From: Serendipita indica DSM 11827
Taxonomy: Eukaryota; Basidiomycota; Agaricomycetes; Sebacinales; Serendipitaceae
Length of the DNA: 64,000 bases
Direction: 5' to 3'
Assembly: GCA_910890315.1 (NCBI GenBank)
Contig: CAJVGD010000001.1
Span: 2,170,001-2,234,000 of the forward strand
In this document: piece by piece, positions 17,249 through 61,878 of the stretch
How the letters are laid out: each line of letters begins with the position of its first letter
Numbering within the stretch: position 1 is the first letter of the stretch
Made by a program: the position numbers and the translations under genes
Notes under the pieces: model-generated
What the model was told of the DNA's origin: nothing
Seen by the model: only the letters and a program-made list of their open reading frames with translations
The model's database searches: none

Positions 17249-17360
17249 GATGTGGTGGTCGAGTGGTCTAAGACGCCAGATTTAAGTAGTAGGTGGCTGC
17301 TTCAGCCATTCAACTCCTGGTGCTCGCGAGAGCGCGTGGGTTCGAATCCCATCCACATCA
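17249..17360 (+). tRNA. tRNA-Leu (anticodon UAA) with an intron
   Basis: The acceptor stem GATGTGG (17249-17255) pairs with CCACATC (17353-17359), followed by the discriminator A. The A-box is TGGTCGAGTGG and the B-box GGTTCGAATCC. A long variable arm (stem GCTC/GAGC, 17321-17332) marks a class II tRNA. The anticodon loop begins TTTAAG, giving UAA at 17283-17285. An intron of about 27 bases sits one base after the anticodon, the standard place for nuclear tRNA introns. The last pair of the anticodon stem appears to be an A-C mismatch. A T-rich terminator, TTATTTTT, follows at once. Exact intron ends are not certain. Confidence 0.9.
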
Positions 17361-17583: not shown

Positions 17584-18458
17584 TTAGGCAGGTAATCCGC
17601 CATGGCAGCTCCGTTCATGCCTTGCCGCGTTCTGCCTCCATCCGGCTTTCCCACTGCATGCAATGTTAGGACGCGGGTTTCACAACGTTCAGCTACAAAT
17701 TTCTACTGACCAGTGCTTACACCGAACATGCGTGTCTTCATCAGTCCGCAGATGGTGCGTCAGACGCTCTTTGCTATGAAACGCTGCGGTGCTATTTCAA
17801 CACGAGGGACATAATCAGTGCGCTGTATACAAGGAGGAATGACCAGCCAACTCACCACGTCGCATCTCCGCATTGTCCACCACACAAAAACGGTCGAGCG
17901 CCCGTGTGCTTGTTTTCGCAGGCCTCGTAACGAACAGGCCTGCTGTGTGTCTTGTGACAATATGGACAGATCTTGGCGCTCTGATGAGTGTCAAAGGTCA
18001 TAGTCCCTGGTGATATTGGAGACGAGCCGCTGGTTGAAACGGGGAGTGGAACCCGATTCTGCAAGGTGGGCACGCTGGGTGAAATCACGCGGGAAAAGGG
18101 CATGACAGCTCCTACTGGCGTAGGGTATGTTGAGGACCTGCTGGAGGACGCAGTCGGCTGCGGCGGATTAGGAGTCAATGCAATGTGCGAGACAGAATGA
18201 CCAAGCGGTCGCATTTGGTGAGTCATAGCGAGATTGCGAGGTAAATTAGAGTGTATATTTTGCTGATATTGTATCCCAGGTGCTGGGTTGGCCGTCGGAA
18301 ACCCTGAAAATTGGATCGGGTACCCCGGGTTAGGGTCCCTATGGTCTTTCTCAGTAGGCTCTTTGGATATGCGTTTGATACTCACCAAGAGGAGACCAAA
18401 TCCCAGGCCCCATCTGTGCGGGGGCACCAAAGGGGTGAGCGAATCCGCGCGAGCTCAT
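17584..18458 (-). CDS. zf1: small Cys/His-rich protein of the locally amplified family
   Basis: Four exons. Exon 1 (18458-18386) is short; exon 2 carries a Ser/Pro/Thr-rich variable region and then CPYCHKTHSRPVRYEACENK and PFLCGGQCGDAT. Exon 3 gives TAAFHSKERLTHHL, and exon 4 CGKAGWRQNAARHERSC plus a short tail ending at TAA 17584-17586. The exon 2/3 and exon 3/4 introns are both phase 2 and split a Cys codon as TG|C and TG|T. The Cys/His spacing suggests three zinc-binding modules, the last two resembling C2H2/C2HC fingers. The first acceptor was chosen at 18346, the only nearby AG that keeps the frame. Function unknown; a nucleic-acid-binding regulator is a guess from ligand pattern only. 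It is transcribed away from tRNA-Leu and lies next to zf2. Confidence 0.82.
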
Positions 18459-19312
18459 GGGCGGGTGTGGAAAGTGGGAGACGAGAGAGATAATGCGACG
18501 AGGAAATGGACGTAAACAATGGTCTTGACAATGTCGTTGAGAGAGCAGAGAGTACTGGCTATCTCCTCCCGCCCCGACGGCGACTTTTATACAGATTAGC
18601 TATGGTCCGTACATCCTCGCTCGACTCTGCGCCCGTTCCCCGTCTACCGAGCCTGTAATCAATTCATCACATGCCGACAAAGTCTTTCCTCCCGGTGATC
18701 ACCTAAGCGCTGCCTCCAGGGTTAAGCCCTCATAGATCTCGTGCGTACATGGTGCGTGTCTGTACGCCATCGATCGGACAGCAATTCACAGCGCCATTTG
18801 AACCATCAAAGCCGGCTGGCGATCGAATTCCGTCTTCCAGACGCCCGGTCATCCACCCGCCTCTGTTCCAAATCGTGAACGCAGTCTTAGCGTGGGAAGC
18901 ACAAGTTTCAGCACGGGAAAGAAGAGTCGGCAGCGGGTTCGATTTGAGTGTCGCCTTGCCCTTGCCCTCTGGGCGGCTGCTAGGAGCAGTAATGCATGCA
19001 CGTTGATATGCTACAGACATGTGCCCCAAATTCACCTGATCCCCTCCGTCGATGGAGTGCTCATCACGGAGATGATGTTCGGTCAGGCGCCGCCCATGGG
19101 GCGCAAAGTGATCGAGACAGAACCACGGTTTACGCCGAGATAATTACACATTAGCGAGTCACCTACAGATGAATTTCAGATGAATTTGCCAGTTTCTCCA
19201 GACTCTGACTGTCAGTCTATTGTTCCATCCTCTCACCGGAACTCAGCACGCCATAACGAGGAAGAGTAGGTCATGCATGAATACTTGCTACTAAACTACA
19301 TGCTCGGCTTTA
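18459..19312. other. Intergenic region upstream of zf1 and downstream of zf2
   Basis: About 850 bases. Apart from the zf1 TATA box near 18584 I find no gene; the open frames here lack recognisable motifs. Confidence 0.4.
18584..18591 (-). promoter_or_regulatory. TATA box of zf1
   Basis: TATAAAAG on the minus strand, 126 bases upstream of the zf1 ATG. Several other members of the family have the same octamer or a close variant at 50-310 bases upstream. Confidence 0.55.
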
Positions 19313-20253
19313 TTACTCGAGAGGCGTGACCGATAGCTTGCAGGTCCGCCGGTGTCGGGCTGCGTTTTGCTTCCAACCGATCTCCCCACTGCGACAAGCA
19401 CAACACTGTAAGCAGGACCTCTTATGAATGGGAGGAAGCCTACCAATTGTTGCATCGCATTCGCCTCTCGTCTCGAGGACGGGTATGACGCCCCAAGAGC
19501 TCCTTGCTGTAGAATTTTGCGGTGCTAGATGCAAGGTGTGAGTGGGGGCGGCATGGCTGCGCGTTCGGGCGATCGACTTACCAGCTCGTATTACCACAGA
19601 TACGGTCACACTTAAACTGAGGTTTCTTACTGGCCTTATTCTGGCACTCTCGGTAGCGTACTGGACGCGAATGAGAGCCCAGACATGTGGCACATATGGC
19701 CCGCTGTTTTGCTGCCTTGTCTACGCCTTGGCTGTTGGAGTTCTGTGTAGTCGGAGCACTTTCTACGGAGGTATTCTGCTGTCCCTCGGATGTCGAATTG
19801 ATCAAAGGAAGCTGAAATTCGGGAATAGGAGGTGGAAGGATCGGCTGGGCTGCGTGGGGACCTGAGGGATCGACCAGAGAGGAGCTCCAGGTTTCAAATT
19901 CGCCACTAATCAGGCCACATGAGCCAAATAATTTTATATCCTCGAATCCTCGGTTGCCGGGGGATACATAAGGCTCGCAAGACGATGGAAACGGAGGACG
20001 TGAGGACGTGTCCAGAACGGGATCCCCGAAAAGAAGAAAGTCGCCAGAAGTAGACGCATGTTGACCAATGGTCGGACTATAGCAGCCTATATTCTCGAGG
20101 CCCGGATCGCCCAGCCACGGGAAAGGCTCGTTTGTAAATGGCAAGGAATCTGCACCAAGGATGAGCTTGTGCTCCTACAAAGTAATCTTTAAACAAACCA
20201 TAGAATGGTGGGAAAACGCACGAAGTTGACTGTGAGTGGGTTGGATATTCCAT
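19313..20253 (-). CDS. zf2: small Cys/His-rich protein of the amplified family
   Basis: Exon 1 (from ATG 20253) encodes a short peptide ending PPFYG. An intron starting GTTTAAAG leads to exon 2, an acidic/Pro/Ser-rich variable region followed by CATCLGSHSRPVRYRECQNK and FKCDRICGNTS. Exon 3 reads TAKFYSKELLGRH, and exon 4 CGEIGWKQNAARHRRTC and a short tail to the stop at 19313. The two phase-2 introns split Cys codons as in zf1. The CGG triplet of the family is changed to CDR here, but all Cys ligands are kept. TATAAG lies 59-64 bases upstream of the ATG (20312-20317, minus). Looks intact. Confidence 0.8.
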
Positions 20254-20311
20254 GATAAGCTGGTGGGGATCGTCGATGAAGAGCGTTGGGTGGATTGAGG
20301 TCTTCAAAAGT

Positions 20312-20317
20312 CTTATA
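20312..20317 (-). promoter_or_regulatory. TATA-like box of zf2
   Basis: TATAAG on the minus strand, about 60 bases before the zf2 ATG, a weaker match than in other members. Confidence 0.4.
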
Positions 20318-20476
20318 GACGGAGGCCAAGAACATAAATAAATTGTACGACATCACAATTTCTCTTCGGACACCTATCTAGTCCTCAGGACGAATTGAAT
20401 GAGGTACCCCCGGGATGTAATGGTGCAAGCCCTCGTGTCCATTACACCCGACAAGCTCCTCATACAAATACTGTAG

Positions 20477-21238
20477 GCACAACCTCGTTCTAGCATTCTG
20501 GTCGAGGACTTGCCCTGAACGGAAAAGGGCGCTAACCCCGTTCCAGTCCCCAATTGACTGACCCTCCGCCCCTTCGTAGCCAGGGCGAGAAGCTTGTGGT
20601 GCTACAAGAAAGATCATTACTGTTAGGGAAACAATAGACCAATTTTGCTCGGCTCACCATCCAGCGACGCCACATGCACCGCCACACTCGTACGGACGGT
20701 ATCCAATGGCCTTGTACAAGCATTCTTGATAACGAATAGGGCGACTATGCGAGTTTCCGCATACAAAGCATTTTGGTCGTTGCGTCCGTGCCTTGACGCT
20801 GGGTTGGCTACTGGAGCCTTGTGCCTCCAAAACACTCCCGGCGACCTCTGGATTTCCTGAGACGACCACGAGCTGATCCGACGGCACGCCCAAGTTGCCT
20901 TGGCATGCTTGATCAATCGAGGTCGGTCCCAGGGTATCATTACCGCTTGACTTTCCGCCGACGGGGCTTGGGTCCCAGAAGAAGGCAGCTTCTCCGAGCA
21001 AGTTGAACGGTGTTACAGATTCTGTGATGTTGTATTGAGACATGGCATTAGGATTCCAAATGGATATGTCCTGCGGTGTGGGCAACGACGGAGACAGTCC
21101 GCCTCGCCTGATATCAGCTACAGGTAAGAAGTCATTAGCATTAGCAATCCCTTTACTCTCTATAGAGCCCGCAGTAGCGTCTTGAAGATGCGCAAACATG
21201 TCGCCGTTCTTGAGGGGATGCTCAGGGGACGGGTGCAT
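20477..21238 (-). pseudogene. zf3: degenerating member of the Cys/His-rich family
   Basis: The exon 2 part is intact (ATG 21238 to 20654): a variable region, then CFVCGNSHSRPIRYQECLYK and YECGGACGVAG, ending at the usual TG|GT donor. Downstream, the expected exon 3 begins correctly with a Cys codon (TTSFSPWLRRG) but then loses the Ser-x-Glu-x-Leu-x2-His core. The exon 4-like stretch (QVLDQNARTRLC) keeps the Gln-Asn-Ala but lacks the His ligand. The N-terminal half could still be made, so this may be a truncated functional variant rather than dead DNA. No separate first exon was found. Confidence 0.6.
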
Positions 21239-21798
21239 GCCGGTGGGAATGAGTCTGCCTCGAGTTTTGCATTTCTCCTTTATGTGATTCCTTCAGCACA
21301 CCTGTACCACCTCAAGCCCTCGTCAGATAGCAAACCGACGAACACAAGCAAGGTAAACCCGTTACCGAATCGGGACATTGCTCCGAACGGGCTGACTGGG
21401 CTAGGTTCTACTCAAAACCATGCACACTTGAAGTGTAGATTTAGCGTTTGTATTCAACGCCTTTGCCCAATCAATGGATGGATGTCCCGCGCCTGTCGGC
21501 CATGTCCGCGTAGTTTTCTTCCGTGGGCAGGCGATAGAATATTCTCAGCATGGTTGGCGCAGCAGTATCCGACCGCAGCGGCGTACACGACGATCGAATA
21601 CCACAAGGGTTTGAACGGAGAAATTCCTGCGCATATACACCACAAGAGCTGCAAGCGTTTTCAAATTCAACACACGTTATACACCGTATAATCAACAGAC
21701 TGTTGTTCACATCTGAAACGGAAACGCTGCCGCCCGCCGTCGCAGTTTCTGTTTTGTTCATCATCATCGTCATCCTCTTTCTCCAGAAAAGGTCTCGC
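21239..21798. other. Intergenic region between zf3 and ERG5
   Basis: About 560 bases containing the zf3 promoter and ERG5 3' flank. No gene seen; a CATAAAG element lies about 35 bases before the zf3 ATG. Confidence 0.4.
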
Positions 21799-23579
21799 TT
21801 ATTCATTTCGGGGAGTGAAATCAAGGAGACATCCATCCTTGGGGAAGATGCTACGCAACATCTCGTCAGCCTCGATCACAGGCAAAAAAAGGGAAAGGAA
21901 AGAACTCACGTGGCAATCATCTGAACACCGTCGCTATCGGGCGTCCTCTCGTGTCTCCAATCCATCAACGACACGGCATTGGCCATGACGCACGCCATGT
22001 TAATGTTTGTATACTCGACGCCAATGCACCGATGGGGACCGGCGCCAAAGACGAGATAGTTCTTCGGGTTGGCATTGGCGCTGCTCTCGGGGTCCAGCCA
22101 TCGCTCGGGGAGGAACTGGTCTGGGTTCGGGTAGACGTTGGGATCGTGGAGCGATGGGTAGAGCGAAGGGATGACCATGCTATTTGCCGGGACGGTGTAA
22201 AACGACGAGATGGGGAATGGCTTTGTGGCCTTGTACGGAACCTATGGCGACGAAATTTAGTCGCTTCTCACAGTCTGTCGCGAGAACGTACCATTGTGAC
22301 CGGTGGCTTGATCCTGAGACTCTCCTTGATGACGGCGCGGAGGTAGGGCATATTGTCGATCATATCGAGGGTGATTGGCTTGGAGTATTCACCACCACGG
22401 ACGCGCCTTTGCTCTTCTCGAACCTTTTCCATAATCTCTGGATAATCTGCCAAGTGCTGGAACATGTAGATCACACCGGAGCTCATGGCATCTTGACTGG
22501 CAAAGAGGAAACTGAGGATGACGAGACCCATCTCGTGATCGTCAAATTCGCGAGGGAGCTTGCCTCCATCCATAATGGCCTTTTCCTTTGCTTCTTGGAT
22601 ATCCTTGACCCATTGATCCATCATGCAGTGAACCTCGCCACCGTCGGCAATGTACTCTTTGCACAACTTTGCCGCATTTTCGAGATGAGCGAGTGCAATC
22701 TTGCGAGATTGAATGGCGCCCCAGACTTTTGTGCCAGGAAGGGCGAGTGGGAAATTGACCAATTCGAGGGCGAGCGTAATCTTCCAATAGTTGTCGCTGA
22801 TGATGGTAATGGCTTCTTCGGGGATATGTTTCCCGCAAAAAACGCGGAGCGAGGTGTGCATGTTCAAGTAACGAACAGTGTGCATGATCGACTGGGGCTT
22901 GTGGTTGACCTCTTCGGCCGTCTTGAGCCAGAGCGCAAAATGGTGACGGGTGATGGTGTCTTGCACCTCGAGGTAGACTGCGAGTGCTTTGCGCGTGAAG
23001 AGCGAATTGAGTGTGCGACGATAGTCGACGTGTGCCTTGCCATTCAAAAACACCCTACCAAAGGGCGTCAGAGGCTGTTATGGTTCTGTTATTCGAAGCA
23101 AAATCGTACCAGTTTTCTGGACAGAGGACCTGTTTAGCCGAGGCAACGAGGCATGGTTCAGCATAGGCGGGCGAGTTGAGAATCTTGCGGGTGTACTCGT
23201 TGGTCGAGGCGATGACAATAAAGCTACGTATATGTGAGTTTGAGAAGGGGAAAAAGCGAGTCTAGACTCACATATGGAACACGCTGAGTGCGCTGAGCTC
23301 TCCAGAGGCCCATTGGCGTTTGTAGCCCTCGAGAGTTGGATGGAGCGAGTTAGCAAACTTTCCGATGATGGGGATTGTCCATCTTGAGCCTGGGAGGGAG
23401 CCCTTCTTGGCGCGATAGACGGTCTGCTCGAGGATGAGAAGGGCAAGCACTGCAGTAAGCGAAGCAGCGATAATCGACGAAGTTTTATCGCTGAGTAGTT
23501 TGTTGCTGAGCGTCTCTGCAGACGAAAAGATTTGACTTGGGACGGAGCTTGGGGAAACGATGGACGACTGGTGGACCAT
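21799..23579 (-). CDS. ERG5: Sterol C-22 desaturase, cytochrome P450 CYP61
   Basis: This enzyme puts the C22-C23 double bond into the ergosterol side chain in the endoplasmic reticulum. From ATG 23579 there is an N-terminal hydrophobic anchor, then KKGSLPGSRWTIPIIGKFA and LEGYKRQWASGELSALSVFH, typical of Erg5. Further on are FLNGKAHVDYRRTLNSLFTR, the I-helix LSFLFASQDAMSSG, the ExxR motif as KESLRIKPP, and the heme ligand region FGAGPHRCIG. Four or five short introns interrupt it. The last exon is short (IFPKDGCLLDFTPRNE), joined by a splice ending TTGCGTAG that keeps the frame. The gene looks intact. It sits between the minus-strand and plus-strand parts of the zf cluster. Confidence 0.94.
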
Positions 23580-24175
23580 GGCTCCAAAAGACCTGAATCG
23601 ACGGGGAATTTCAGGTGTGTTTTTACAAGCTCAAAGTCCGTGCAGAATTGTCAATGGGACAGCAGAGACTGGCGGTGTCGGTGGTCAACCTTTTGGTCAT
23701 CCATCGAACGACTTTCGACCGTCCCAGAAAGGCAGCCGGCCGGCGCGGGCCAGGCTTTGCCCAGATCACATAAGAAGCTCAGTCATCGACATCGGACATC
23801 TCGTTTACGTGCGCAACTTGGCAGAGGAAAAATCGCTAAGTCGACTAGAAAATATCGTCAATATTCCATAGCATCATGGCAACATTGTCAATCACCACAT
23901 TGACTGCGACGGGCATTTCAAGAGCCAAGGTGCGACTGTCCATCCGTGCATCTGGCCCCTCCTTAAGTACACGTCCTAGCCGCGCGCAAACCGGCCTGGC
24001 TAGTCTCAACCTCCGCCGATTGGTTCACCTACAAACTCCAACACGCGGCTAAGCACAGCAAACTCACGGTAATCTCCGATACCTACCCAGCTCTAGACGC
24101 CATCAAAATCTCTTAGGCCTCGATCAACCAGTCATCATCTCACAACTCTGAGATTAAACAACCAAAATAGGCTTA
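23580..24175. other. Divergent intergenic region between ERG5 and zf4
   Basis: About 600 bases that should hold the ERG5 promoter. No coding sequence or repeat recognised. Confidence 0.4.
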
Positions 24176-24764
24176 ATGGTTCAGTGGAATCCACAGACAG
24201 CTGGGCACGCAGCGTCAGTTCAACGTCCCAATCAACATCAATCTATCTCAATTTGGATACTGGAGCCACTCGAACACCCAACTATCATGCAAACGCTTGA
24301 TTGTTCTGACAAATATCGAAAGAGGATGGTCACCAGCAAACAACCCTCCAGGCGCTCGTTAGGGTGCCCTGTCACTCTGGGATCACCTTGTCCACTATGT
24401 TCCAAGGTCCACAGCCGTCGGGCCCGTGCTGAAGCCTGTTTCAACAAGCAGACAGGCGCACGGCCTTTTCCTTGCGGTGGAGAGTGTGGCAATACTGGTT
24501 TATATTCCTCACGATCTTCCTTCAATTACGCTGATAATCGCCGCCTTTGTTCGTAGTTTGAAAATTTTTTCCAGCAAAGAGAATCTCACGAAACATATCG
24601 CACCAAAGGATCAAAGGTACAAACTTTGTGATTTCTGGTCAGTATAGACGGCCCCCTCCTTGGCCCTGATTCCACCACGAGGTCTGACCAGAATGCATAG
24701 TGGACACAGCGTGAGTAAGTAGAACATGAGCCGTTATAGGCGCACTTGCATCAAGGGGAAGTAG
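24176..24764 (+). pseudogene. zf4: broken member of the Cys/His-rich family
   Basis: From ATG 24176 the variable region leads to CPLCSKVHSRRARAEACFNK and PFPCGGECGNTG. Compared with intact members, four bases are missing just before the donor, so the Cys codon that should span the splice is out of frame. Exon 3 (from 24599 back to about 24555) still reads LKIFSSKENLTKH. Exon 4 gives CGHSVSK, an in-frame TAG at 24720-24722, and then NMSRYRRTC. Two independent defects make this a likely pseudogene, though a short protein ending in the first module could still be made. Confidence 0.7.
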
Positions 24765-25992
24765 CTGCGTTTCACTCTGCAGAATATAGAGAGCCAAAGG
24801 ACAGAACGGTCGACAGCAGCACTAGCGTGTGCTTTTCTCGTGTACAATTGTAGCCCAAGCACCTTAATTTGAACTCAGTTAGGTTAGACATGCCCGTATG
24901 GGGTGAGCGTAAATGGCTTAGATGGATTGCCAACGACGACGTGAAGAAGTTGCCGACAAGAACCGGTCGTGTGATGACCTGAGATGTCATTGGGACACGG
25001 AAGAGCCCGTTGTGGCAGTCTCGTTTGGGGATGGAAATAAGGCGTATCCAGCATGTATTCATTGATCGGGTGAAATACCACATGGATATTTTCCTATCAT
25101 CCGCGTGCGCCCCCGGATTCGTCCGACCCCAAGAACCATCAAGCAGCTCAATCAGGAGGTCGTAAACAAGCTCTTCGCATAACGGTATGATTTAGGTTTA
25201 TTTTATTTAATAAAATGAAATAGCCTGCGAGCACAGGAGAGCCGAATGGTATCTCCGACAAACACGCGGCATGGACACATCGACGTACCGGCAGCGTAGC
25301 CCCAATCGTACTTGCCGCCTCCCAGTGTGTGCCTTTATGGACGATGGCTGGAGGGGTGGGCGAGGTCGACTCTGGTCTTGGTTGCGCCTTGATTTGGTTC
25401 TGGACGACCGTTCAAAGGTGCCAGATAGCATATAGGTCAACGGCCGGTCTAGTAGAAATCAATGAATTCGACAGGGCCACAACTAGCATCCAGTACCTGT
25501 ACAGCTGGTGTCCCCTTGTGGCGCTTAGCTACCCTAAACAGCCGCAAACGCGCAACCTATCGAGCTTTGGTAGCGATGTCAATACTAGTTTGTTGCACCT
25601 CTGATCCCCGGGACGACACAAAACAGACAGCTCGCAGCCGGATGAAAGGGACAGATGAAAAGGCATCCATTTGATTAGTTGCCTCTACCCGCAGCACGCT
25701 TACCACGCGCCATGTCGGCTGATCCGTCCGACCTCAGCTATATCCATCACTACTCACTATCTCGGTGGAAATAAGCCTGTCGCATACGTTATTGCTATGA
25801 AATTACTATTTAAATAATTATTTCTGAGAGCACGGAGAACAGGGACCATGCAAAGGAGGCGGGGTGCCCATTGATAACGGGAATTTTTTTCCCAAAATTA
25901 TAGTAACGCCTACCACGCTCTTGTGCGTGTCCACTAGACACCTATAAAAGGGGATGGTCTATCTCCTGCCGCAATCCTACCGAGCAGTGGTG
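24765..25992. other. Intergenic region between zf4 and zf5
   Basis: About 1.2 kb. Open frames on both strands show no recognisable motif, and I see no repeat or mobile element. The zf5 TATA box is at its right end. Confidence 0.4.
25943..25950 (+). promoter_or_regulatory. TATA box of zf5
   Basis: TATAAAAG 50 bases before the ATG at 25993. Its position makes the earlier in-frame ATG at 25954 unlikely as a start, since transcription would begin downstream of it. Confidence 0.65.
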
Positions 25993-26851
25993 ATGTCCTC
26001 CGAGCATTCTCTCCCAGATCCAAGAATCATCGAGGAGTACTGGAAAACAGCCTTTGGTGAGTGTGCTCTAGTCCAAGCTCGTGGTTCTCTTACGTCGCTG
26101 ACGCGGGTTATAGGCATGGCTTTCCCAAACGTTCCGAATGATATGACTGCGCGTCTAGACGAGCTTGGAACCTTTCCAGACTTGTCGATGGTGACCAGCG
26201 ATGATGCCAGCCTGACCAGCCTGACCAGTTGGAAGCACCCGCCGTCCCCTGTCCAGACTAGTGCAAGCCCTCCAAGCGTACCCACTAGTCCTCAGCATCG
26301 AAACGTTGCCGTGAAGTATTCTGCAGGACGTGCGATGAGCGGTGTCGTTCCAGCTCCGGGGACATCCTTTACCAGAGCACCAAACAGCCTGCTCACCGTT
26401 ACGACGCCAAACGTAGGTGCTATCACAGGACCTGCCTCTCCGTCTTCAGAAATCGTGGTCGGATCTCCTTGCCCTCGCTGCAGCCGAATTCACCCACGCG
26501 CGGTTCGTGCAGAAGCCTGTCTGAACAAATGGCAGGATATCCGTCCGTTTGCTTGCGGTGGTGCCTGTGGTTTACTTGGGTGGTGAGTTGGAGTTTTCCT
26601 TGTTCCCATCCGCAAGGTGCTCCGCTCACCCTATTGCCTCATCAGTTCCAAGGAGTTCTTCAGTAAAGAAACTCTCGCAAAGCATACCTTGCCCGAGGAT
26701 CGCAAGTATGAAACGTGCGACATTTGGTCAGTATGAATCACCTCTCCTGTCTATCATTTGGTTGAGGTAGCTGATCGAGATGCGCAGCAACGAGAAACAG
26801 AGAAAGCAGAATATGGCTCGTCACAAAGAGACTTGCGACAGAGCGACATAG
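25993..26851 (+). CDS. zf5: small Cys/His-rich protein of the amplified family
   Basis: Exon 1 (MSSEHSLPDP to WKTAFG) ends at 26056. Intron 26057-26113 is 57 bases long and free of in-frame stops, so its retention would keep the frame. Exon 2 holds a Ser/Thr/Pro-rich variable region and then CPRCSRIHPRAVRAEACLNK and PFACGGACGLLG. Exon 3 reads SKEFFSKETLAKH, and exon 4 CNEKQRKQNMARHKETC and the stop at 26849-26851. All the Cys/His positions of the family are kept. Together with zf4 it has RAxAEAC in place of the RPVRYxAC of the others, so these two form a subgroup. Looks intact; function unknown. Confidence 0.82.
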
Positions 26852-28191
26852 TTCGTCTCCGCACATGGCTCCGTCCATCATTTTATGGCATGCCGTTAAT
26901 GTCGAAACTTCTATGATCACAACCTCGAGCGGCCAGACGTGTCGGCGGTGTGGTCAGTTCCAGACAATAACGTGAAGCAGCTAAATAATACCGAGCCTTT
27001 TCTTGTTCGACTTAATCATTTGAGCGCAAGAGCGTGGTCTGTCGGCCTGTGTCCTGCGTCCGAGTTAGCTGCAACATGAAGTTGCGCGACATGCTAGATG
27101 ACCATCTATGATACTCCTTCGCTCTGGATGCCACCTTTGACCTTGATAGAGGCTTAACCAGTACTGTCGAGTGCCGGATTTTACTCACAACGCGACTGAT
27201 TATCCAAGGTGCATTCTACCTCGTTGATGCGTAATGAATCCCTTGTTAAAGTTGTCGTATACTCATACGATGACCTCTCTTGACCCAGAGCGGAACAAAT
27301 TACAGTGCGGGCCTGCCTCTTACTGGCATCGCGCCGCGGCGCTTTCTCCGAGCGAGAACTAGAGAAGGTGCGAATAGAAATCGTATTTGGAGCGTTATTC
27401 ATTTTAGTGGGCGTCTTTTTTGATTGAGGCGTAAAGGCTGGCATCTGGGAAAGAGTCAGCAAACACGGAGAACGCAGAGGCCGTCGGGCCAGTCAAAGTT
27501 TGTCCATTAACGGACATGGAACTATTTATGGGAAGCAGTGAACACCACGTTCTTATTAGACGGATTATGATGAATGCGACTAAGTGATCAGCTGGACCCG
27601 TGGCTATGAGATATTAGGCGTAGAAATGATCTTCAGTCGGCGAAAGGTCAAGTCAATGTCGCACAGCCCGACATCCTCTCGGTGCGACTGATGACTGGCT
27701 TTTCGACGTGTCCCAAACTGCGGCCACTCGATTGCTGGCATATCCGCTGGAGCTACAATATGATGGCTGGAAGTAGGACGTAAAGGTAATATTAAAGGTA
27801 CGAATGGGGATGAATCGGAGCACTGGCCAGTCGTCGACTGCTCGCCCTTCCAGTTGGAACGGTGTGTACTATGGACAGTAGCGTCGATAGAAAGCGGAAT
27901 GATCAAGGTACCTAAGTCGCAATGTCGGTGCAGTTAGACGCTCGTTATTCATCCCCTGGTGGCTGCTTGGAACGTTTGGTTGGAAGCCGTCCTTAGCGGT
28001 ACGCGCCCATCAGGAGCAGAGTTGGAACACATAATTCTTGACTCGAATAGACGGGACGGTGGGCCATCGCATACTATGGGATGGTCAGGATGAAAGTCCG
28101 CGTGCACAAGAGCGCGCCGTGAAGGACAGCTGGTAACTAATCCTGTGCCCTGTTCTCCATAAATCCAGCGAATCTTGAGAGGATTCCCTTC
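26852..28191. other. Intergenic region between zf5 and zf6
   Basis: About 1.3 kb. No convincing gene. A weak minus-strand resemblance to a family exon 4 near 27700 was judged chance. Confidence 0.4.
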
Positions 28192-29049
28192 ATGGAGCCC
28201 TCCCAGGACCATCGAGCCTCAAACCAGCTGCTTCCGGAAGGCAGCTCGGCGGGCAGAAGGCGGGAGGAGGAAGTCCAGTTCGACTGGTCACTTCTCAACA
28301 GTGAGTACTTCCTATGCTCACCGCTGTCTGCGCAGGATGGTAACAAGCACCAGGCCAGTCGTCGGCACCTGACCAGGCACCTCTGGATCTCTCGTACTCC
28401 ATATATCAATATTATGCCCCTGATCTATATGCTCATCAACCACTGCCGTATTTCGTACCTGTTTCTCAGTCATCCACCATCCCCGTCCAGCAGCCACCGC
28501 CACCGCCATGGCTATTCCCAATGCCTATAAACAGCAACGCGGGCGCACCTAGCATGAAGTTTGATCCTCCGGTGCAGGACGCATTCTCGTATCCTCAGCC
28601 CGTCGCCGGCACGACGAGCTCGGTGGTCAGTCCACCGCAGGAATCGCCTACGGGGCGAATCTGCATGTACTGTGGGAGGACACATACGAGGCCGGTGCGG
28701 TACCAAGCCTGTCAGAATCGATTCCTCGGGCTGAGGCCGTTTCCTTGTGACGGAGGTTGCGGTCGCATCAGATGGTAAGGGATCGTAGATGTATCTTGAA
28801 AGGATACTCACAGGCAGTCCCGTGCAGTACGGCATCGTTCCACAGCAGAGAAAGGCTGAGACAGCATTGCCTCCCAGAGGAGGCAACCCACGTGCGATGC
28901 AGACGATGGTATAGTCTCGTTCCATTGCTCCGCGAGATATCATTGAACTCTGATCTAGTGGACACCTGGGTTGGCGTCAGAACGTGAACCGGCATGAACG
29001 AAGTTGCCGTGATGCACATCGTTCCCAGTTTGATACTATGTTATGGTAG
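28192..29049 (+). CDS. zf6: small Cys/His-rich protein of the amplified family
   Basis: Exon 1 runs 28192-28300 (ending FDWSLLN); intron 28301-28353. Exon 2 is rich in Tyr/Gln/Pro with a PPPPP run, then has CMYCGRTHTRPVRYQACQNR and PFPCDGGCGRIR. Exon 3 reads TASFHSRERLRQH with a following CRRC; exon 4 is CGHLGWRQNVNRHERSC and a tail to TAG 29047-29049. The acceptor at 28353 was chosen because the nearer AG at 28334 leads to an in-frame stop. The two ligand-splitting phase-2 introns are conserved. Looks intact. Confidence 0.82.
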
Positions 29050-30521
29050 AATGAAGATGGACATGCCTAATAATGGAGATCCCCGATTATGGACCTTAGC
29101 GGCGTCACGGTGTTTGACGTCGTTGTATTCCCAACGTCGTACCAAATGTAGCTATGATTGAACAATTGAATCAATGAAATTTCCCTAGATGTGATTTTTC
29201 ATGATGATCTCTGTATACTAAGGCATACCTGGATGATTCCACGTCTGTCGCTGTGCGAGAGAGAGAGCCACCACCCGCTGACCTTGTCAACCAACCTCGG
29301 GAGATGGGAACTATCCGCTTTCTGACTTATTGCCAGGCCTATCGGTCGCTTCAAGGTGCATATATGAATTGACGATCATGGCCGGAGCCGCGGCCAGTGG
29401 ACTCAACAGCGCTGTTTATCGTGGGATATGAGGCATTACCCACCAGATCATGGCCTTATGAGCTAGGTCGATGACAGTTATCGGCCCAAGGCCGACGCGA
29501 AGCGCGAGCGATTGGGGGGCAGATGCACGGGCCCTTACTGAGGCCGACAGTCCTCGAGGCTGTCACTGCAGTGTTTCATCTGCGTCGTTGAGATGGTAGT
29601 CATGCGTCTGTACACCCTCTGCCAGACGCTGATCGCATACTCGCACCTCGGCGCGAACGGGCTGATCAAACCCCCGAGAAATCCTGGGCCGTAATAGTCA
29701 AATTAAGCCTTATCGCCAATGCAATTGAACTCCTCACCTTGCAGTCTTGATCGCGAGTACCGGAGGAAGATGCGCCCCCGGGGAGAGCCTGGTTACGATC
29801 AAACACTTGCTGGTTCGATTCGTGGCCGATTGTGTGCATATTATAGACCGGGATTTACTCGATCCAGTGAACAGATGACATTTTCCTTTGCGCACAGCTG
29901 AGAATGGACGGGGCTCCACAGTGATCACCTGCAGTGGAAACGAGTGTGAGAGAGCAAAGAAATACGTATAGAGACGGTATATCGTACCAGCGAACCGCCG
30001 GGTGTTTGATCGACCACTAGTCCGCTTAGGGCCTGCCTCTGGCCGAAGAAGGTGTCATAGAGCTTTGTGAACACAAAGATCCAATCCGATTCCGATTGAG
30101 GACGGGCTGTGGGCTGTGGGTTGAGGGCGCCGGTGAAATGGACAGGCCTTGTGTGAAGAGGGAGACGAACAATGACCCCAAGTAGCAGCCTACGTGGAGA
30201 CTGCAGTGTCATATAAAAGGCCATACGAACATAGCTGTCACATCTGCACAGAAGCGCTTCGCGACGCCCGCTGCGACAGTCAAATCTGGACAGATTGTAG
30301 GGACATCATCGCACTTACCACTCCTTTCCAGTAAGATCTGGAGAGCATTACGAGCCACTCCTGGTCAGTAGCCGCCTGCTCGCGTCTGTTGTGGCGAATT
30401 TTGGTGGCTATTCTTCTACGTCAGCTACGATCAAAACGACCCAAATCAACTGTATTACCTACGATCTATCCACAAACGGCCAGTTTGAACAAAATTAGTC
30501 GCCCATCGACTTTCATTAGAC
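29050..30521. other. Intergenic region between zf6 and zf7
   Basis: About 1.5 kb, the longest gap in the cluster. The TATA box at 30212 is probably for zf7. A stretch near 29745-29860 faintly resembles a family exon 3 but lacks the ligands. No transposon features seen. Confidence 0.4.
30212..30219 (+). promoter_or_regulatory. TATA box, probably of zf7
   Basis: TATAAAAG, 303 bases before the zf7 ATG. The distance suggests a long or spliced 5' leader. Confidence 0.5.
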
Positions 30522-30966
30522 ATGTCTTCGAACCAAGGTTATTTCGATTTCGAGGGGTTTTATACTGGCTCCTCATTACGTACTTCTGGAATATGCCAGT
30601 ATTGTGGAAGGACGCATAGTCGACCTGTTCGATATCGTGCTTGTAGGAACAGGTACTACGGTATCCAAGAATTTGTGTGCGGCGGTCAGTGTGGAAACTA
30701 TGCCTGGTAATGTACTCCTGAACCTAGTCTTTATTGCTTTCTTACCATTCCGCATTGATGAACAGCCGAGAGGCCTTTTACAGCCAAGAGCGGTTAAGGC
30801 AACATACGCTCCCAGAGGAGCGAACACACGTCAGATGTGAACGCTGGTATTTTGTTGTTCCTGTCGTCTTCGATCGTTGACTAACCGTTCGGGTAGTGAC
30901 TTGCGTCAATGGAGACAGAACATTTCACGGCACCTTCGAACATGCCGAGGACGAAACGAGTCCTGA
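30522..30966 (+). CDS. zf7: shortest member of the Cys/His-rich family
   Basis: From ATG 30522 there are only about 23 residues (MSSNQGYFDFEGFYTGSS...) before CQYCGRTHSRPVRYRACRNR and FVCGGQCGNYA, so the variable N-terminal region is nearly absent. Exon 3 is REAFYSQERLRQH then CERC; exon 4 is DLRQWRQNISRHLRTC, ending at TGA 30964-30966. An in-frame TGA near 30486 shows the frame does not extend much further upstream unless an upstream exon exists. Both ligand-splitting introns are present. It approximates the minimal conserved block of the family. Confidence 0.78.
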
Positions 30967-31983
30967 AAGCATGAGTGACATACAAGTTGGAGCCCTCCGC
31001 TGGAGAGCGGCACCGTCCGGTCGTTTCCGAGGTTTGTAGATATGGTATTGTATGTAACGATGATATATATGAGACCTCTATCATATGGAACATGGTCACC
31101 GCTATCTGATGCTGGTCCATTCCCCGAGCGGCGTGTCTTGAGCATGTCAAAGTCGCAACTTCCTTTGCATCGGAGACTTGTTTAGATCGATTTCGAGTGG
31201 ATTTGTATGTCTTTGTGTCGCGTAGTCGTCCCCGCGGTCGTTGCCGTTGTGTTGGTCGGGTCCAACCGTAGTCGAACAGCACCTCGCTTCAGGCCACTAC
31301 CACGACCAACCTCAAATGTACTGCAAACGAAGAGTTTTAATCAAAAGGCTGCTTCTATTGCTGGGAACGACGAAGTTTACTCGTGTTGTAGGCCTCTGGA
31401 GACTCTGCCTTCTTGACACGCCAATGAACCACGAGAACTCTTTTCAATGTCTGATGATTCGGGATATGGCGAATCGTGCACGGGCCGACAAACCGGCGCC
31501 CAAAGGTGGGGATGCTTGGTTCTTCTTGTTGTCAGAGATTGTTGGGTTCTGAATCTTCGACATTTTGACATTTCACTTTATGGCTGGTTCAAATCGTATT
31601 ATTGAGCGTCAAAGCACCCCTTTGACCCCACTCTTCGCGGTAATGGCAGGAGGCTTCGCAGCGGAACGCAAGGATCCAGGCCGAGGTGATGACGCCTCTC
31701 GGTCTCCCCCCGTGAGAGTGTACAGTTGACAGCTGCTGGGCCGTAGCGCGACGCTCAAATGGACGCTACCACCCGCAGTTCACGTCAGCTCTCGGCTTTT
31801 ACCCAGAGGCAAACAGCTACCTGCGCTTCTCAACTCAACGGAATTGACCGCTTACCAATGCACCCAGCGAAGTTTGTTCTTGGATAGTCATAAAGCGACA
31901 GACCTCTGAGGAGTCTATCCTCGTATAAAGGCCCAGTGGCCAAGTATCAAGGCGCCTGGCATCATCCGAGTCCTCCAGGCCTT
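30967..31983. other. Intergenic region between zf7 and zf8
   Basis: About 1 kb. No gene recognised. The zf8 TATA box lies near the right end. Confidence 0.4.
31924..31930 (+). promoter_or_regulatory. TATA box of zf8
   Basis: TATAAAG 60 bases before the zf8 ATG at 31984, which favours that start over an upstream in-frame start-like codon. Confidence 0.55.
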
Positions 31984-32680
31984 ATGCAATCTGAAAACAA
32001 CATAGGATCCTCTATTCCACTGCGAGACAGTATAGAGGCTGTATGGTGGGCGATGTACGGTAGGCGTCTTCATACTGTCGTCTCATTCAAGCTCATAAGT
32101 CAACGGTATAGACTTGGACTGTTGGCTCAGCGTGACGCCGACACCGACAGTGCTCACGCCTTTCAATCTATCGCCTCTGAACCAACAGGTCCCACTTTGC
32201 ATTGATCCCCCCTCATCTCCGGCTTTACAGCCACCTATGGCTGCCTCCTCGACCGCAAACGATCACTCGACGCCGAATCAGATGCCGACTCTGGCCAGGC
32301 CATCGAATATGCCCACGCGTCCACTTTGCTCTTACTGCGGAAGGAAGCACACTCGACCTGTACGTTATCAGGAATGTCAGAATCGACATACCGGCGCAAA
32401 GCCATTCTCCTGTCAAGGTGTCTGCGGGCAGTCCGGCTGGTGTGTATGACTCGTCCCCCACCTGGTCTTTTCTCACGTCCGCAGTATGGCTGCCTTTTCC
32501 AGTCGCGAACAGCTTCGACGGCACCTTCTCCCAGACTGCATTACACATGTACGGTGTAAACGATGGTAAACATCCTCATTGAATCGGCTGTTACAAGCTG
32601 AGTTCTTCTCCAGTGGACATCTTGGTTGGAGACAGAATGCGGCTCGACACGAAAAGACGTGCTCATCTTCCATCTTCTAA
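31984..32680 (+). CDS. zf8: small Cys/His-rich protein of the amplified family
   Basis: Exon 1 (31984-32059) ends AVWWAMYG with a phase-1 splice. Exon 2 from 32112 is Pro/Thr/Ser-rich and then has CSYCGRKHTRPVRYQECQNR and PFSCQGVCGQSG. Exon 3 reads MAAFSSREQLRRH then CKRC; exon 4 is CGHLGWRQNAARHEKTC and a five-residue tail to TAA 32678-32680. CGG is changed to CQG, with the Cys ligands kept. Looks intact. Confidence 0.83.
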
Positions 32681-33272
32681 ACTTCCAAGAGATAGCGGCG
32701 AAACACTCTTGCATGGCTCATGGGCTCATAGGCAGTGTGATCGAAGACAATACCCAAAGCGATGAGATAGCTGGGAGGACGGCGCCAGCCATTGTATGGA
32801 GTATAGATAATTCTGAATAGGATCATGGAACGGAGTCTGTCATTCTCCTTCTTAGACTTCCTAATGCCTACCGAGAAATTCGGGTGCGGTCATTATTCGC
32901 TCGGTAGGCTGAGCTGACACACGCAATGACAAACGTGGCCTCTCCTAAGAATTGACACTGACAAGATTATGGGATCGCGAGGAGCGAGAGAGCACCGGCG
33001 ACCTCAGGCGATGCGAGGTCGTACACGCTCCGTGGACCTTGCTTGCGACTCGGCAGCCCGATTATCATTGACAAGGGAAGCGGTCAATTTACGTCAATTC
33101 AATGGAATATGACAATCTATCGACCAGGAGAAAGCGCCTTCTCGGGGGGTGTCACCGCTGCAATGCAAAAAAGAGCGGAAACGGGTGAAACTGTTGATCA
33201 TCGCCATTCCTTTCGTGGCTTTAAGAACGCATCTACTCCAGAGGACGCGGCCCATCCCTCCTAAGACTCGCG
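32681..33272. other. Intergenic region between zf8 and zf9
   Basis: About 590 bases, nothing recognised. Confidence 0.4.
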
Positions 33273-33954
33273 ATGAGCTTTGAAGGCAACCTAGCATATA
33301 TACCGACCGAGGAAGAGATTGAGACAGCCTGGTGGCTCTTCTTCGGTACGATAATATACGATAGCCAGTACTAATTGCTTATCCTTGCTACGTCCCCTAG
33401 GCTGTCAGTATCCAACACAACCCATGGACAATAACGGTAGCTTCTCTGGTACACCGACTCAGAGCACTCCCCTCGCAAACATACCCAGACAAGGCCAAGC
33501 CTCAAACAGTACCCGTTCACGGACGTCCATGTCTAGGGGCGCATCGCCTTTGAACTCCATGTCATCTAAGCCTGTGCTATGTGTGCACTGCGGGAAGCCA
33601 CATACGAGGCCGGTGAGGTATGAGGCGTGCGAAAATTGGCATAGCGGGGCGAGGCCGTTTGTGTGTGGCGGAGTATGCGGACGTCCTAATTGGTAGGTCC
33701 TTCAGTCGTAGTCTCGTTTCAAGAAGTGGATAGCTCACCATTGTGTGCTTTCTTGTCTCTAGTACAGAAGCCTTCCATAGTAAAGACAGGCTCAGACAAC
33801 ACCTAGTCCCCAAAGAAGAGTTGCGAGTGAGATGCAAGCGCTGGTACGTGATACGCGTTTTGAGAGATGATACTTGCGACTGACAGTTACGAACAGTGGC
33901 ATGGTTGGATTGAAGAAAAACGCCGCACGTCACGAGCGCAGCTGCGGCAAGTAA
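33273..33954 (+). CDS. zf9: small Cys/His-rich protein, clearest full example of the family
   Basis: Exon 1 33273-33345 (MSFEGNLAYI to WWLFFG), exon 2 33401-33692, exon 3 33763-33843, exon 4 33897-33954. All introns are GT-AG, 50-70 bases. The conserved block reads CVHCGKPHTRPVRYEACENW, PFVCGGVCGRPN, then CTEAFHSKDRLRQH, CKRC and GMVGLKKNAARHERSC. Intron 1 is phase 1 inside a Gly codon; introns 2 and 3 are phase 2, each inside a ligand Cys codon. The predicted protein is about 168 residues, without a signal peptide or membrane segment. Zinc binding is inferred from the Cys/His spacing; the biological role is unknown. Confidence 0.85.
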
Positions 33955-55339: not shown

Positions 55340-55602
55340 TTGCTGCGTTTCTGGGTTGATTTCGAGTAAAAGAGGAGGATGTGGTCCGGGTCCAAGTTTG
55401 CGTTGCACAACCAGGACTCGAGGCAGAACGACCGACCAATGGACGGCCGCCTCACACTAAGGCACCGTCCTCGACGACGGAAACTCGGAAGATTGGGGGC
55501 CATTCCAATCGAGTAATTCAAAACTAAATCAAAGGAATTACTGGATAACTTGGATAGCAGTGGCGAACCCAACAATCGGAAAGCTTGGACATCACCGCCA
55601 AA

Positions 55603-58516: not shown

Positions 58517-59257
58517 ATGAACGACCTTGGCGAATGGTGGCCCCTTGACACCATGAATATAAATTCCGACGCGACTGCTCCGGTTGAGAGCACGAGGAAC
58601 GAGGATCAGGGCTCGACCCATGTTATTGAACACGCACCGCTCGTCGACGCATCTGCGTGGAGTACGTTCGATTATGGTTCGGTCCCGGCCTACCCCGCGC
58701 GTGGCCTTCGATCCGACCTCCGGGCTCAGTCTACATCGTCTTATGGTATAAATACTCGACTACGCCCAAGTCTTGGTCCCACTTCCAGCGCTGACGACCG
58801 CCTACCCCAACGCGCCAGCACCGTCGAACACGCCTTTCCCATCCCTACTCCCCCAACCACAGCCGGCTCACTGTAAACGACCATTGTGCTCTTACTGCGG
58901 TCGTACACACACGCGTCCCGTGAGAGACAGAGCATGTCGTAACAAGCATTTAGGACTCTTGCCTTTTGTATGTGGTGGAGACTGCGGCAAACTGGAATGG
59001 TCAGTGCTCCTTCTATCGGGATACTCTGGAAGACTAACAAGCGTGGCTAAACACCGTGTCAGTCTCAAGATCTTTGCAAGCGCAGAGCGAAAGGCGGCCC
59101 ATGTGCGTGGTCGTGTCAACTGCGAGGTGTGGTACGTCTGTCGCGTACCGTGATATAAGCTCTCGTTTTGACTTTTTTTTTTTTTACGCGCAGCGGACGG
59201 CCTGGGTGGCGTAAGAATCAGAGTCGCCACCGTGCACGATGCAATCCCAGTCTTTGA
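58517..59257 (+). CDS. zf10: distant-copy member of the Cys/His-rich family
   Basis: Exon 1 (MNDLGEWWPLDTMN...) ends at a Tyr-Gly codon pair near 58745; an intron of about 43 bases joins ALTTAYPNAP. Exon 2 has CSYCGRTHTRPVRDRACRNK and PFVCGGDCGKLE. Exon 3 reads LKIFASAERKAAH then NCEVC; exon 4 is CGRPGWRKNQSRHRARC, with TGA at 59255-59257. The His-to-Cys gap is x6 rather than the x10 of zf1-zf9, so this copy and zf11 form their own subgroup. The last intron has a run of 13 T before the acceptor. The phase-2 Cys-splitting introns are kept. Looks intact. Confidence 0.8.
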
Positions 59258-60537: not shown

Positions 60538-61299
60538 ATGTCTTCGAATTTGAATACTCGTTGATACTATCGTCAGTGTCCCTTCCACTCTTCTTACCAG
60601 CTATTGCCGACGTTGGACATGAGAGCGATCATATCGCTGATGCAAACTCACTTTAGAAGCTCATTATGCCCCAGAAATCGACCTCTGGCCTTTTTCGTCG
60701 ATAATGAGACATCTACTGGCCCAGATGCGGCCCACACGAGCACCCGGTCCCGGCCTCCAGCCAATGTCTCCCCGCCTCCCGTGGTCACCTTCGACCCACT
60801 TGCATGGACCAACATTATTCAATCGGTCCATGAAGCTTCTATCCCACTCGTGCCCTCGGCGACATTGAGTACATCAGCCAATGCCATGTCTGCCATCAGT
60901 CAGGTGATTGCATCAACGTCCACGCACCCTATTCTACCTCAAAAAAAATGGACCTTCATGCCCTTGCTGCGGGGGGCGCTCACCCGCGACCCGTCCGCTT
61001 TCGAGCCTGCAGTAATAAACACCTTGGGCTGTATATTTTCGCGTGTGTCGGTGAGTGTGGCAAGGCAAATTGGTAAGCGGTACAGTCTATTCGATTCTAC
61101 GAGGGTTGCTGACGTCCTGGATTCTCCCCAGTGTTCAGACATTTGCGAACTCCGAGCGGAAGGCTGTTCATGTTAATGGTCGCACAAATTGCGAGTTTTG
61201 GTACGCATGCTGTACTCTAAATGGCCTCGGGACTGATTCAGTCGCACAGTGGAAAGCTGGGGCTGGAGGCGGAACCAAGCACAGCATCGTATGAGTTGC
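60538..61299 (+). pseudogene. zf11: pseudogene of the Cys/His-rich family
   Basis: The conserved block is present but scattered over frames. TGC-CCT-TGC-TGC at about 60960 matches the first module, but that frame soon meets two stops (TAATAA at 61012). CVGECGKAN, just before the donor at 61073, is in another frame. Exon 3 is intact (VQTFANSERKAVH, then NCEFC). Exon 4 starts CGKLG, then one extra base shifts to GWRRNQAQHRMSC. It is closest to zf10, sharing SERKAxH, x6 spacing and WR(K/R)NQ. At least three frame changes mark it as dead. The TATA box survives. Confidence 0.75.
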
Positions 61300-61878
61300 A
61301 GCTTGAGATTGATACGGTAAGATTTTGCATTTTGAGACGATCTAAACGAAATCTGTTACATGCTTTGCGCGTCGCTCGAATGTGCCTGAAATGTGATGGA
61401 GTGATCTTTATAAACCGTCAATCTTAGAGTCTAGTCAACAAGATATGCCACCATCTTGGCTTATGTCAGGCACGCCATAGTCTGTTCAGGTATTGTTCCA
61501 CTGAATATATATATTGCTTTGATCCTCTCATTGACACCCTCACTTGTAGTCTCCTGCTCACTGCTTGCGAGCTATTTGGTTGACGTTAGTAATCTAAGGC
61601 TGTAGCCTCGCTCACTTGTCCCTTAGCCACGACCAAGATGTCAGACGAGATTGCCTTGATTCTCGCAAACAGCGAGGACCGATGGACAGGCTCTCGTCGA
61701 ATAAATGCATAGTGAGCATACTAGATCACAACGCGATTATCTACAACGGGTTTCCAGTCTATTATGTAGGTGCAAGTAACGAGTGGTTCAAGAAACGAGG
61801 GACATCGAATAATGATCAAACTTGGAGACCGATAAAACATCTCCAGAGGTCGGATCCCAATTATTGATGAGGAGAAGA
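61300..61878. other. Intergenic region between zf11 and the exonuclease-like gene
   Basis: About 580 bases, nothing recognised. Confidence 0.35.

What the first reader, a model, noticed from the sequence alone, without database searches (positions are those of the whole stretch)
17584..33954. A cluster of nine related small Cys/His-rich genes with an apparently undescribed zinc-ligand pattern
Nine copies (seven whole or nearly so) share C-x2-C-x3-H-x8-C-x11-C-x3-C-x4-C-x12-H-x10-C-x2-C-x11-H-x3-C and the signatures H-x-R-x2-R, PF-x-CGG-x-CG and N-x2-RH. Their N-terminal halves are unrelated in sequence and differ in length from about 20 to over 150 residues. The C-terminal part resembles two atypical C2H2/C2HC fingers, the first part a separate Cys/His module. 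I know no named family with this layout. Such a block, with constant ligands, variable partner region and high turnover, would fit a fast-evolving regulatory or recognition family; this is inference.
Basis: partly seen in the sequence, partly recalled or inferred. Interest (0 to 1): 0.85.

Follow-up and report, generated by a model that had tools for sequence, protein, structure and literature searches.

The report
Fungal zinc-finger cluster with altered ligands
A fungus, probably a root endophyte, carries a cluster of small zinc-finger genes that descend from the ordinary C2H2 kind, in which the residues expected to grip the zinc in the first finger have changed while the predicted DNA-reading residues stayed fixed.

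Summary
In detail: nine related copies lie at 17584-33954, seven with an intact finger module and two broken. The window holds two more (58887+ intact, 60969+ broken); six intact copies of this type lie elsewhere in the genome, which is Serendipita indica or very near it. The interpretation changes. This is not a separate Cys/His module plus two fingers, but a three-finger C2H2-type array with altered ligands. Twelve paralogues share the layout and, in 24 of 26 modelled genes, both introns inside the same Cys codons; 11 of 12 keep a C2H2-spaced finger 1 and two pass Pfam's zf-C2H2 cut-off. In the window type the first zinc His of finger 1 is Cys, the core-aromatic position is an invariant His, and the old last His is missing in 5 of 14 (four changes on the tree). 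Predicted base-contact positions are unusually conserved and the module is under purifying selection where that can be measured, so "fast-evolving recognition" is not supported for the fingers; N-termini do diverge. Likeliest function, inferred: small nuclear DNA-binding regulators. New variant of a known kind.

The parts
17584..18458 (-). zf1, module intact: finger 1 from 17968; exons ..17856, 17791-17711, 17653-17584; candidate first exon from 18458
19313..20174 (-). zf2, module intact: finger 1 from 19694; exons ..19582, 19524-19444, 19388-19313; residue 23 is Ala; start exon not settled
20600..21292 (-). zf3, broken: finger 1 whole, finger 2 aberrant and cut short, finger 3 not found; low end approximate
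24158..24770 (+). zf4, broken: out of frame at the first splice site, stop in the last exon, ligand His to Tyr; high end approximate
   Evidence: read by eye
25948..26851 (+). zf5, module intact: finger 1 from 26470; exons ..26582, 26646-26726, 26788-26851; residue 23 is Trp; candidate first exon from 25993
28192..29049 (+). zf6, module intact: finger 1 from 28662; exons ..28774, 28828-28908, 28959-29049; residue 23 is Phe; candidate first exon from 28192
30489..30966 (+). zf7, module intact, shortest N-terminal open frame; finger 1 from 30594; exons ..30706, 30766-30846, 30897-30966; residue 23 is Tyr
31984..32680 (+). zf8, module intact: finger 1 from 32327; exons ..32439, 32485-32565, 32614-32680; candidate first exon from 31984
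33273..33954 (+). zf9, module intact: finger 1 from 33580; exons ..33692, 33763-33843, 33897-33954; candidate first exon from 33273
58752..59257 (+). zf10, module intact, outside the finding's limits: finger 1 from 58887; exons ..58999, 59063-59131, 59194-59257; start exon not settled
60940..61350 (+). zf11, broken or mis-assembled: frame shifts in finger 1 and in finger 3, both at runs of G; read by eye, limits approximate

Best explanation
The block is a three-finger domain descended from ordinary C2H2 (TFIIIA-type) fingers, tandemly expanded, with changed zinc ligands. In alignment A2 numbering, finger 1 uses C3, C6, C19 and H10 (H23 is still there in 9 of 14); finger 2 uses C31, C35, C40, H53; finger 3 uses C64, C67, H79, C83. 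Shown: relationship to C2H2 arrays, shared intron positions, which residues changed, purifying selection in the measurable pairs, conservation of predicted contact positions. Inferred: the assignment of ligands to fingers; that H10, which sits where C2H2 fingers have their core aromatic, binds the zinc and so freed H23 to be lost; that the array binds DNA; and that paralogues read similar sites ('same address') while unlike N-termini give different outputs ('different message'). The proteins would act as small nuclear activators, repressors or competitors.
For: Profile-profile match of the 14 window-type copies (A2) with 12 paralogues (A3): probability 99.7, E 2e-26, 86 columns. Two of the 12 paralogues pass the zf-C2H2 cut-off of 25.2 bits: C5:1932634 with 38.3 (27.9 for its finger 1 alone) and C5:1918183 with 27.2, matched at finger 1. 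A2 profile against PDB: 2i13 (Aart) E 3e-7, aligned over columns 2-82, then ZNF568 and TFIIIA. Both introns at the same Cys codons in 24 of 26 modelled genes, one of the two in the other 2. H10 in 14 of 14 window-type and 0 of 12 paralogues; residue 19 Cys in 14 of 14 and 1 of 12; H23 in 9 of 14 and 12 of 12; on a tree built without these columns H10 needs one change and H23 four. Arg at helix -1 and +3 of finger 1 in 26 of 26. Twelve contact columns: mean entropy 0.63 bits against 1.75 for 53 other non-ligand columns, permutation 5e-5; 0.0046 within helices. Module pI 9.0-10.5; N-terminal open frames 33-56% S/T/P/Q/N. AlphaFold places a helix at residues 14-25 of the finger-1 peptide (block pLDDT 84 and 83 for residues 1-20), and 43 of 43 Foldseek matches are entries of C2H2 proteins by title.
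Against: 0 of 14 window-type copies pass a Pfam cut-off, and 10 of 12 paralogues do not pass that of zf-C2H2. The PDB E-value sums several stretches of repeat proteins; the best single stretch in 2i13 has E 0.0048, with a bias correction of 10 bits. The AlphaFold model covers only finger 1 and the linker, has no strands and pTM 0.46; every Foldseek E-value exceeds 1. No geometry was measured: H10 may be a core or phosphate-contact residue. Nine of 14 copies keep H23 too. The core position is aromatic in only 8 of 12 paralogues. Finger-1 ligands changed in other ways as well: of 12 further relatives read by eye, L058 has C-x2-C-x12-C-x3-C and L061 lost both His. The tree counts two changes at residue 19, so the Cys of C5:1072558 may be independent. 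The window clade has support 83/83 without the trait columns, 89/89 with them, neither starred. Conserved contact columns could be conserved for the fold. In 85 of 91 pairs dS is saturated, and in 3 of the other 6 it exceeds 2. No expression or binding data exist here.
Confidence: 0.68

Rival explanations
1. Same origin, but the fingers now bind RNA or protein, not DNA.
For: Fingers 2 and 3 have unusual ligands and finger 3 is one residue short (C-x2-C-x11-H); in paralogues it draws weak matches to zf-C2HC_2 (C5:159506, 22.1 bits against 27) and zf-C2HC_3 (C5:1932634, 18.4 against 24). In REF6 a ligand from the next finger keeps two fingers from binding DNA directly (PMC12264921, section 4 read).
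Against: Arg at helix -1 and +3 of finger 1 in 26 of 26, and contact positions conserved beyond others, as expected for base reading.
Confidence: 0.25
2. One reading: an unrelated Cys/His module joined to two atypical fingers, evolving fast as a recognition family.
For: No Pfam cut-off reached; N-termini differ.
Against: C2H2 paralogues with the same introns and spacing; low dN/dS where measurable; contact positions conserved.
Confidence: 0.05
3. A decaying array of little function, kept by unequal crossing-over.
For: 3 of 11 window copies are broken; copies are clustered.
Against: 14 copies keep all 12 ligand columns, open module frames and splice sites although synonymous sites are saturated in 85 of 91 pairs.
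Confidence: 0.07
4. Host-directed nuclear effectors of a root endophyte rather than regulators of the fungus itself.
For: Small, basic modules, clustered, variable N-termini; the organism is probably a plant endophyte.
Against: By eye none of the five candidate first exons (zf1, 5, 6, 8, 9) begins with a hydrophobic signal stretch; no predictor was run. A paralogue's array sits in a frame of 498 codons.
Confidence: 0.06

Closest known systems
C2H2 / TFIIIA-type zinc-finger arrays (PF00096)
   Same: C-x2-C-x12 spacing and TGEKPF-like linker in finger 1, C-x3-F in finger 2, profile match over nearly the whole block
   Different: No finger keeps the C2H2 ligand set; an extra Cys in finger 2; finger 3 is C2HC and one residue short; below Pfam cut-offs
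REF6 (Arabidopsis) zinc finger 1
   Same: A C2H2 finger whose missing last His is replaced from another position (PMC12264921, section 4 read)
   Different: There the His comes from position -6 of the next finger; here the candidate lies in the same finger at position -9, the core-aromatic place
ZBTB7A ZF4 and CTCF ZF11 (C3H1 fingers)
   Same: Cys replaces a His ligand in a C2H2 finger (PMC12264921)
   Different: There the last His is the one that is Cys; here the first is, and a third position may be recruited
KRAB-type poly-zinc-finger clusters of vertebrates
   Same: Tandem, lineage-specific zinc-finger gene clusters
   Different: Those show positive selection at contact positions -1, 3 and 6 (PMC2604467, passages); here those positions are conserved

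Membership tests
C2H2 zinc finger (PF00096) | Sequence relationship to C2H2 arrays | tested here: met
   A2 profile to 2i13 E 3e-7 for the whole sequence, 0.0048 for the best stretch; A2-A3 hhalign E 2e-26
C2H2 zinc finger (PF00096) | Pfam gathering cut-off | tested here: not met
   0 of 14 window-type copies; 2 of 12 paralogues pass
C2H2 zinc finger (PF00096) | Two Cys and two His ligands at C-x2-4-C-x12-H-x3-5-H | tested here: not met
   Residue 19 is Cys in 14 of 14; fingers 2 and 3 lack a conserved last His
C2H2 zinc finger (PF00096) | Beta-beta-alpha fold around one zinc | tested here: inconclusive
   Helix at 14-25, no strands assigned, pLDDT 73.9; 43 of 43 Foldseek matches are C2H2 entries by title but all E > 1
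C2H2 zinc finger (PF00096) | DNA binding | not testable with these tools
   Only indirect: conserved contact positions
zf-C2HC_2 (PF13913), finger 3 | Match above its cut-off | tested here: not met
   3 of 14 window-type copies listed, best E 3; best paralogue C5:159506 22.1 bits against 27, at residues 62-82
BED zinc finger (PF02892), finger 3 | Match above its cut-off | tested here: not met
   Not among the 25 of 26 families shown for the window type; 1 of 12 paralogues passes, C1:1241194 with 23.1 bits against 20.6 at residues 59-86
Retroviral-type CCHC knuckle | C-x2-C-x4-H-x4-C | tested here: not met
   Finger 1 is C-x2-C-x3-H-x8-C in 14 of 14; knuckle spacing as in PMC12264921

The most novel reading that the evidence does not exclude
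A zinc-ligand relay seen in one genome: in finger 1 of a C2H2 array the first zinc His turned to Cys (a comparable C-x2-C-x12-C-x3-H state exists at C5:1072558, though the tree may count it as a separate event), the core-aromatic position turned to His and took over as ligand, and the original last His was then lost about four separate times, all while the predicted base-reading arginines stayed fixed. If so, the C2H2 fold accepts a ligand at its core-aromatic position, and a gene family can rewire its metal site without losing its DNA address.
Probability: 0.4. Interest if true: 0.65.

Novelty: new variant of a known kind. Interest (0 to 1): 0.5.

Why it matters
A census of basidiomycete C2H2 genes states that sequences lacking the canonical motif were discarded (PMC12295980, passages); such a filter would drop the window-type genes. 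The superfamily, 42 places counted in this genome, offers a within-genome series for asking how zinc ligands change in a DNA-binding fold, and a contrast to vertebrate clusters, where contact residues evolve fastest.

Tried and rejected
Independent Cys/His module: rejected. Retroviral knuckle: spacing does not fit. Positive selection on contacts: the opposite pattern. Relatives outside the genome: in prokaryote genomes 27 pattern matches, none confirmed; in viral contigs 36 matches, none confirmed; no plasmid match for the DNA of one copy, zf6. No collection of named fungal genomes was available, so spread in other fungi is unknown. A shared first exon in all copies is not shown: a scan that asked for Trp near the end of a first exon gave a likely one, in phase 1, for five of eight intact window copies (zf1, 5, 6, 8, 9), but only zf8 and zf9 are alike by BLAST. 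The first DNA pattern search found nothing, being too strict. Literature: no description of this family in the search listings, nor in passages of the P. indica genome paper PMC3192844 ('zinc finger' 0, 'C2H2' 0 in its main text; its supplementary tables not read) or of PMC3998117.
Full report
What is there. The window is C1:2170001-2234000 of a 24.7 Mb, 55-contig genome. Both Pitef1 primers of Serendipita (Piriformospora) indica, printed in PMC5966479 (passage seen), match it exactly, on opposite strands and facing each other over 162 bases, so it is that species or a very near one. Nine copies lie at 17584-33954 as reported, seven with an intact finger module and two broken; the limits are the stop codons of zf1 and zf9. 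The window holds two more, zf10 (intact) and zf11 (frameshifted, read by eye). Outside it lie six intact copies of the same type: C1:2158210, 2164437, 2244948, 2246593, C50:12820 and C5:155456. Fifteen places therefore fall within about 88 kb of C1.

Gene structure. The finger-1 exon, the finger-2 exon and the last exon are separated by two introns of 45-71 bases in the 14 intact window-type copies, and both introns split a Cys codon after TG. Exact models were recovered for 14 of 14, with GT-AG ends except two GC-AG introns. The two cysteines made by splicing are C40, the second Cys of finger 2 in C2H2 register, and C67, the second Cys of finger 3.

What it is. Twelve modelled paralogues elsewhere in the genome share the layout. 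Of the 26 modelled genes 24 have both introns at these codons; C1:2117983 lacks the first and C1:1241194 the second. In 11 of the 12 paralogues finger 1 has C2H2 spacing (C-x2/4-C-x12-H-x3/4-H); in the twelfth, C5:1072558, the first His is Cys. Two of the 12 pass the zf-C2H2 cut-off (38.3 and 27.2 bits against 25.2); the other ten do not, and 0 of 14 window-type copies pass any cut-off. The two groups match by profile-profile comparison with probability 99.7 over 86 columns. The window-type profile alone finds solved C2H2 proteins first, best 2i13 with E 3e-7 over columns 2-82; that figure sums repeated stretches, and the best single stretch has E 0.0048. The 'separate Cys/His module' is thus finger 1 of a C2H2-type array, and HTGARPF in zf1 is the familiar TGEKPF linker (linker motif recalled). 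Finger 3 (C-x2-C-x11-H-x3-C) resembles C2HC and BED fingers more than C2H2; one paralogue passes the BED cut-off there (C1:1241194). Twelve further relatives were read by eye. The count of 42 places is 14 + 12 modelled, C7:30913 with an unclear finger 2, three broken window copies, and these twelve; the search tool calls its counts lower bounds.

The ligand changes. In A2 numbering residue 19 is the place of the first zinc His of a C2H2 finger, residue 23 of the second, and residue 10 of the core aromatic (register recalled; the His reference agrees with PMC12264921). Residue 10 is His in 14 of 14 window-type copies and in 0 of 12 paralogues, where it is aromatic in 8 of 12. Residue 19 is Cys in 14 of 14 and in 1 of 12. 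Residue 23 is His in 9 of 14 and 12 of 12; the five others are Ala, Ala, Trp, Phe and Tyr. Of the broken copies zf3 has Ala, zf4 Gln and zf11 His there. On a tree built without these three columns H10 needs one change, residue 19 two and H23 four; the counts do not depend on the root, so the direction is inferred. The simplest reading is that H10 took over as ligand and H23 became dispensable. No zinc geometry was measured. Against a neat story: two of the twelve by-eye relatives changed finger-1 ligands in other ways, so this finger is labile across the superfamily; the Cys of C5:1072558, on a very long branch, may be a separate event; and the window clade has support 83/83 or 89/89, below the tool's star.

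How it probably works. Base contacts of C2H2 fingers sit at helix positions -1, 2, 3 and 6 (PMC12264921, section 4 read). Finger 1 has Arg at -1 and +3 in 26 of 26 genes. I took 12 contact columns over the three fingers, counting back from the His (or Cys) at the first-His place, which matters in finger 3 because it is one residue short; columns 1-2 and the gapped columns 55-58 were left out. Mean entropy is 0.63 bits against 1.75 for 53 other non-ligand columns; 20,000 random draws gave 5e-5, and 0.0046 when drawn only from helix columns. Finger 2 positions +3 and +6 do vary, and some of these residues may be conserved for the fold. dN/dS of the module is 0.10-0.19 in the 6 of 91 pairs with finite dS, three of which have dS above 2; the other 85 are saturated. 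For the one pair whose N-termini align (zf2, C1:2158210), pN/pS is 0.49 in the N-terminus (0.279/0.574) and 0.27 in the module (0.180/0.660): looser, but no sign of positive selection. The picture is a fixed finger part with a changing N-terminal part; vertebrate clusters do the reverse (PMC2604467, passages). That these are DNA-binding regulators is inference.

Structure. The model has mean pLDDT 73.9, pTM 0.46 and a helix at residues 14-25; strands were not assigned. All 43 listed Foldseek matches are entries of C2H2 proteins by title, none with E below 1. This agrees with a C2H2 fold and does not prove it.

Novelty. Ligand-swapped C2H2 fingers are known (ZBTB7A ZF4, CTCF ZF11, REF6 ZF1). 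I found no description of this family, or of a ligand at the core-aromatic position, in the searches listed under Tried and rejected; the library is open-access only. A 30-species census of basidiomycete C2H2 genes discarded non-canonical motifs, and its main text does not name Serendipita or Piriformospora (passages). I rate it a new variant of a known kind.

Noticed in passing
window 55040-55456, strand -: What looks like the finger exon of an ordinary C2H2 gene (CSHCSRKFATRSHLVRHSRVHTGERRYACDYPGC), just under the PF00096 cut-off (25.1 bits), next to a His/Gln-rich 576-codon frame at 53309-55039; not one of the family.
   Followed up: partly
window 22268-23077, strand -: A cytochrome P450 exon (PF00067) lies inside the cluster, between zf3 and zf4.
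   Followed up: no
window 17249-17360, strand +: A 112-base tRNA match beside zf1: Rfam scores it 45.6 bits, ARAGORN as run here finds none; perhaps intron-bearing.
   Followed up: no
L058 (C1:2504988) and L061 (C1:2350307): Relatives with other finger-1 ligand states: C-x2-C-x12-C-x3-C in L058, both His missing in L061 (by eye).
   Followed up: partly
L045, L051, L052 (C5:159-176 kb), L053 (C7:28-31 kb), L054 (C13:503-509 kb): Further tandem clusters of the paralogous three-finger genes, several with a W[FL]...EP segment shortly before finger 1.
   Followed up: partly
window 46733-48925, strand -; 11408-12577, strand +: Dynein heavy chain exons (PF08385) between zf9 and zf10, and a formin FH3 domain (PF06367) upstream of zf1.
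   Followed up: no
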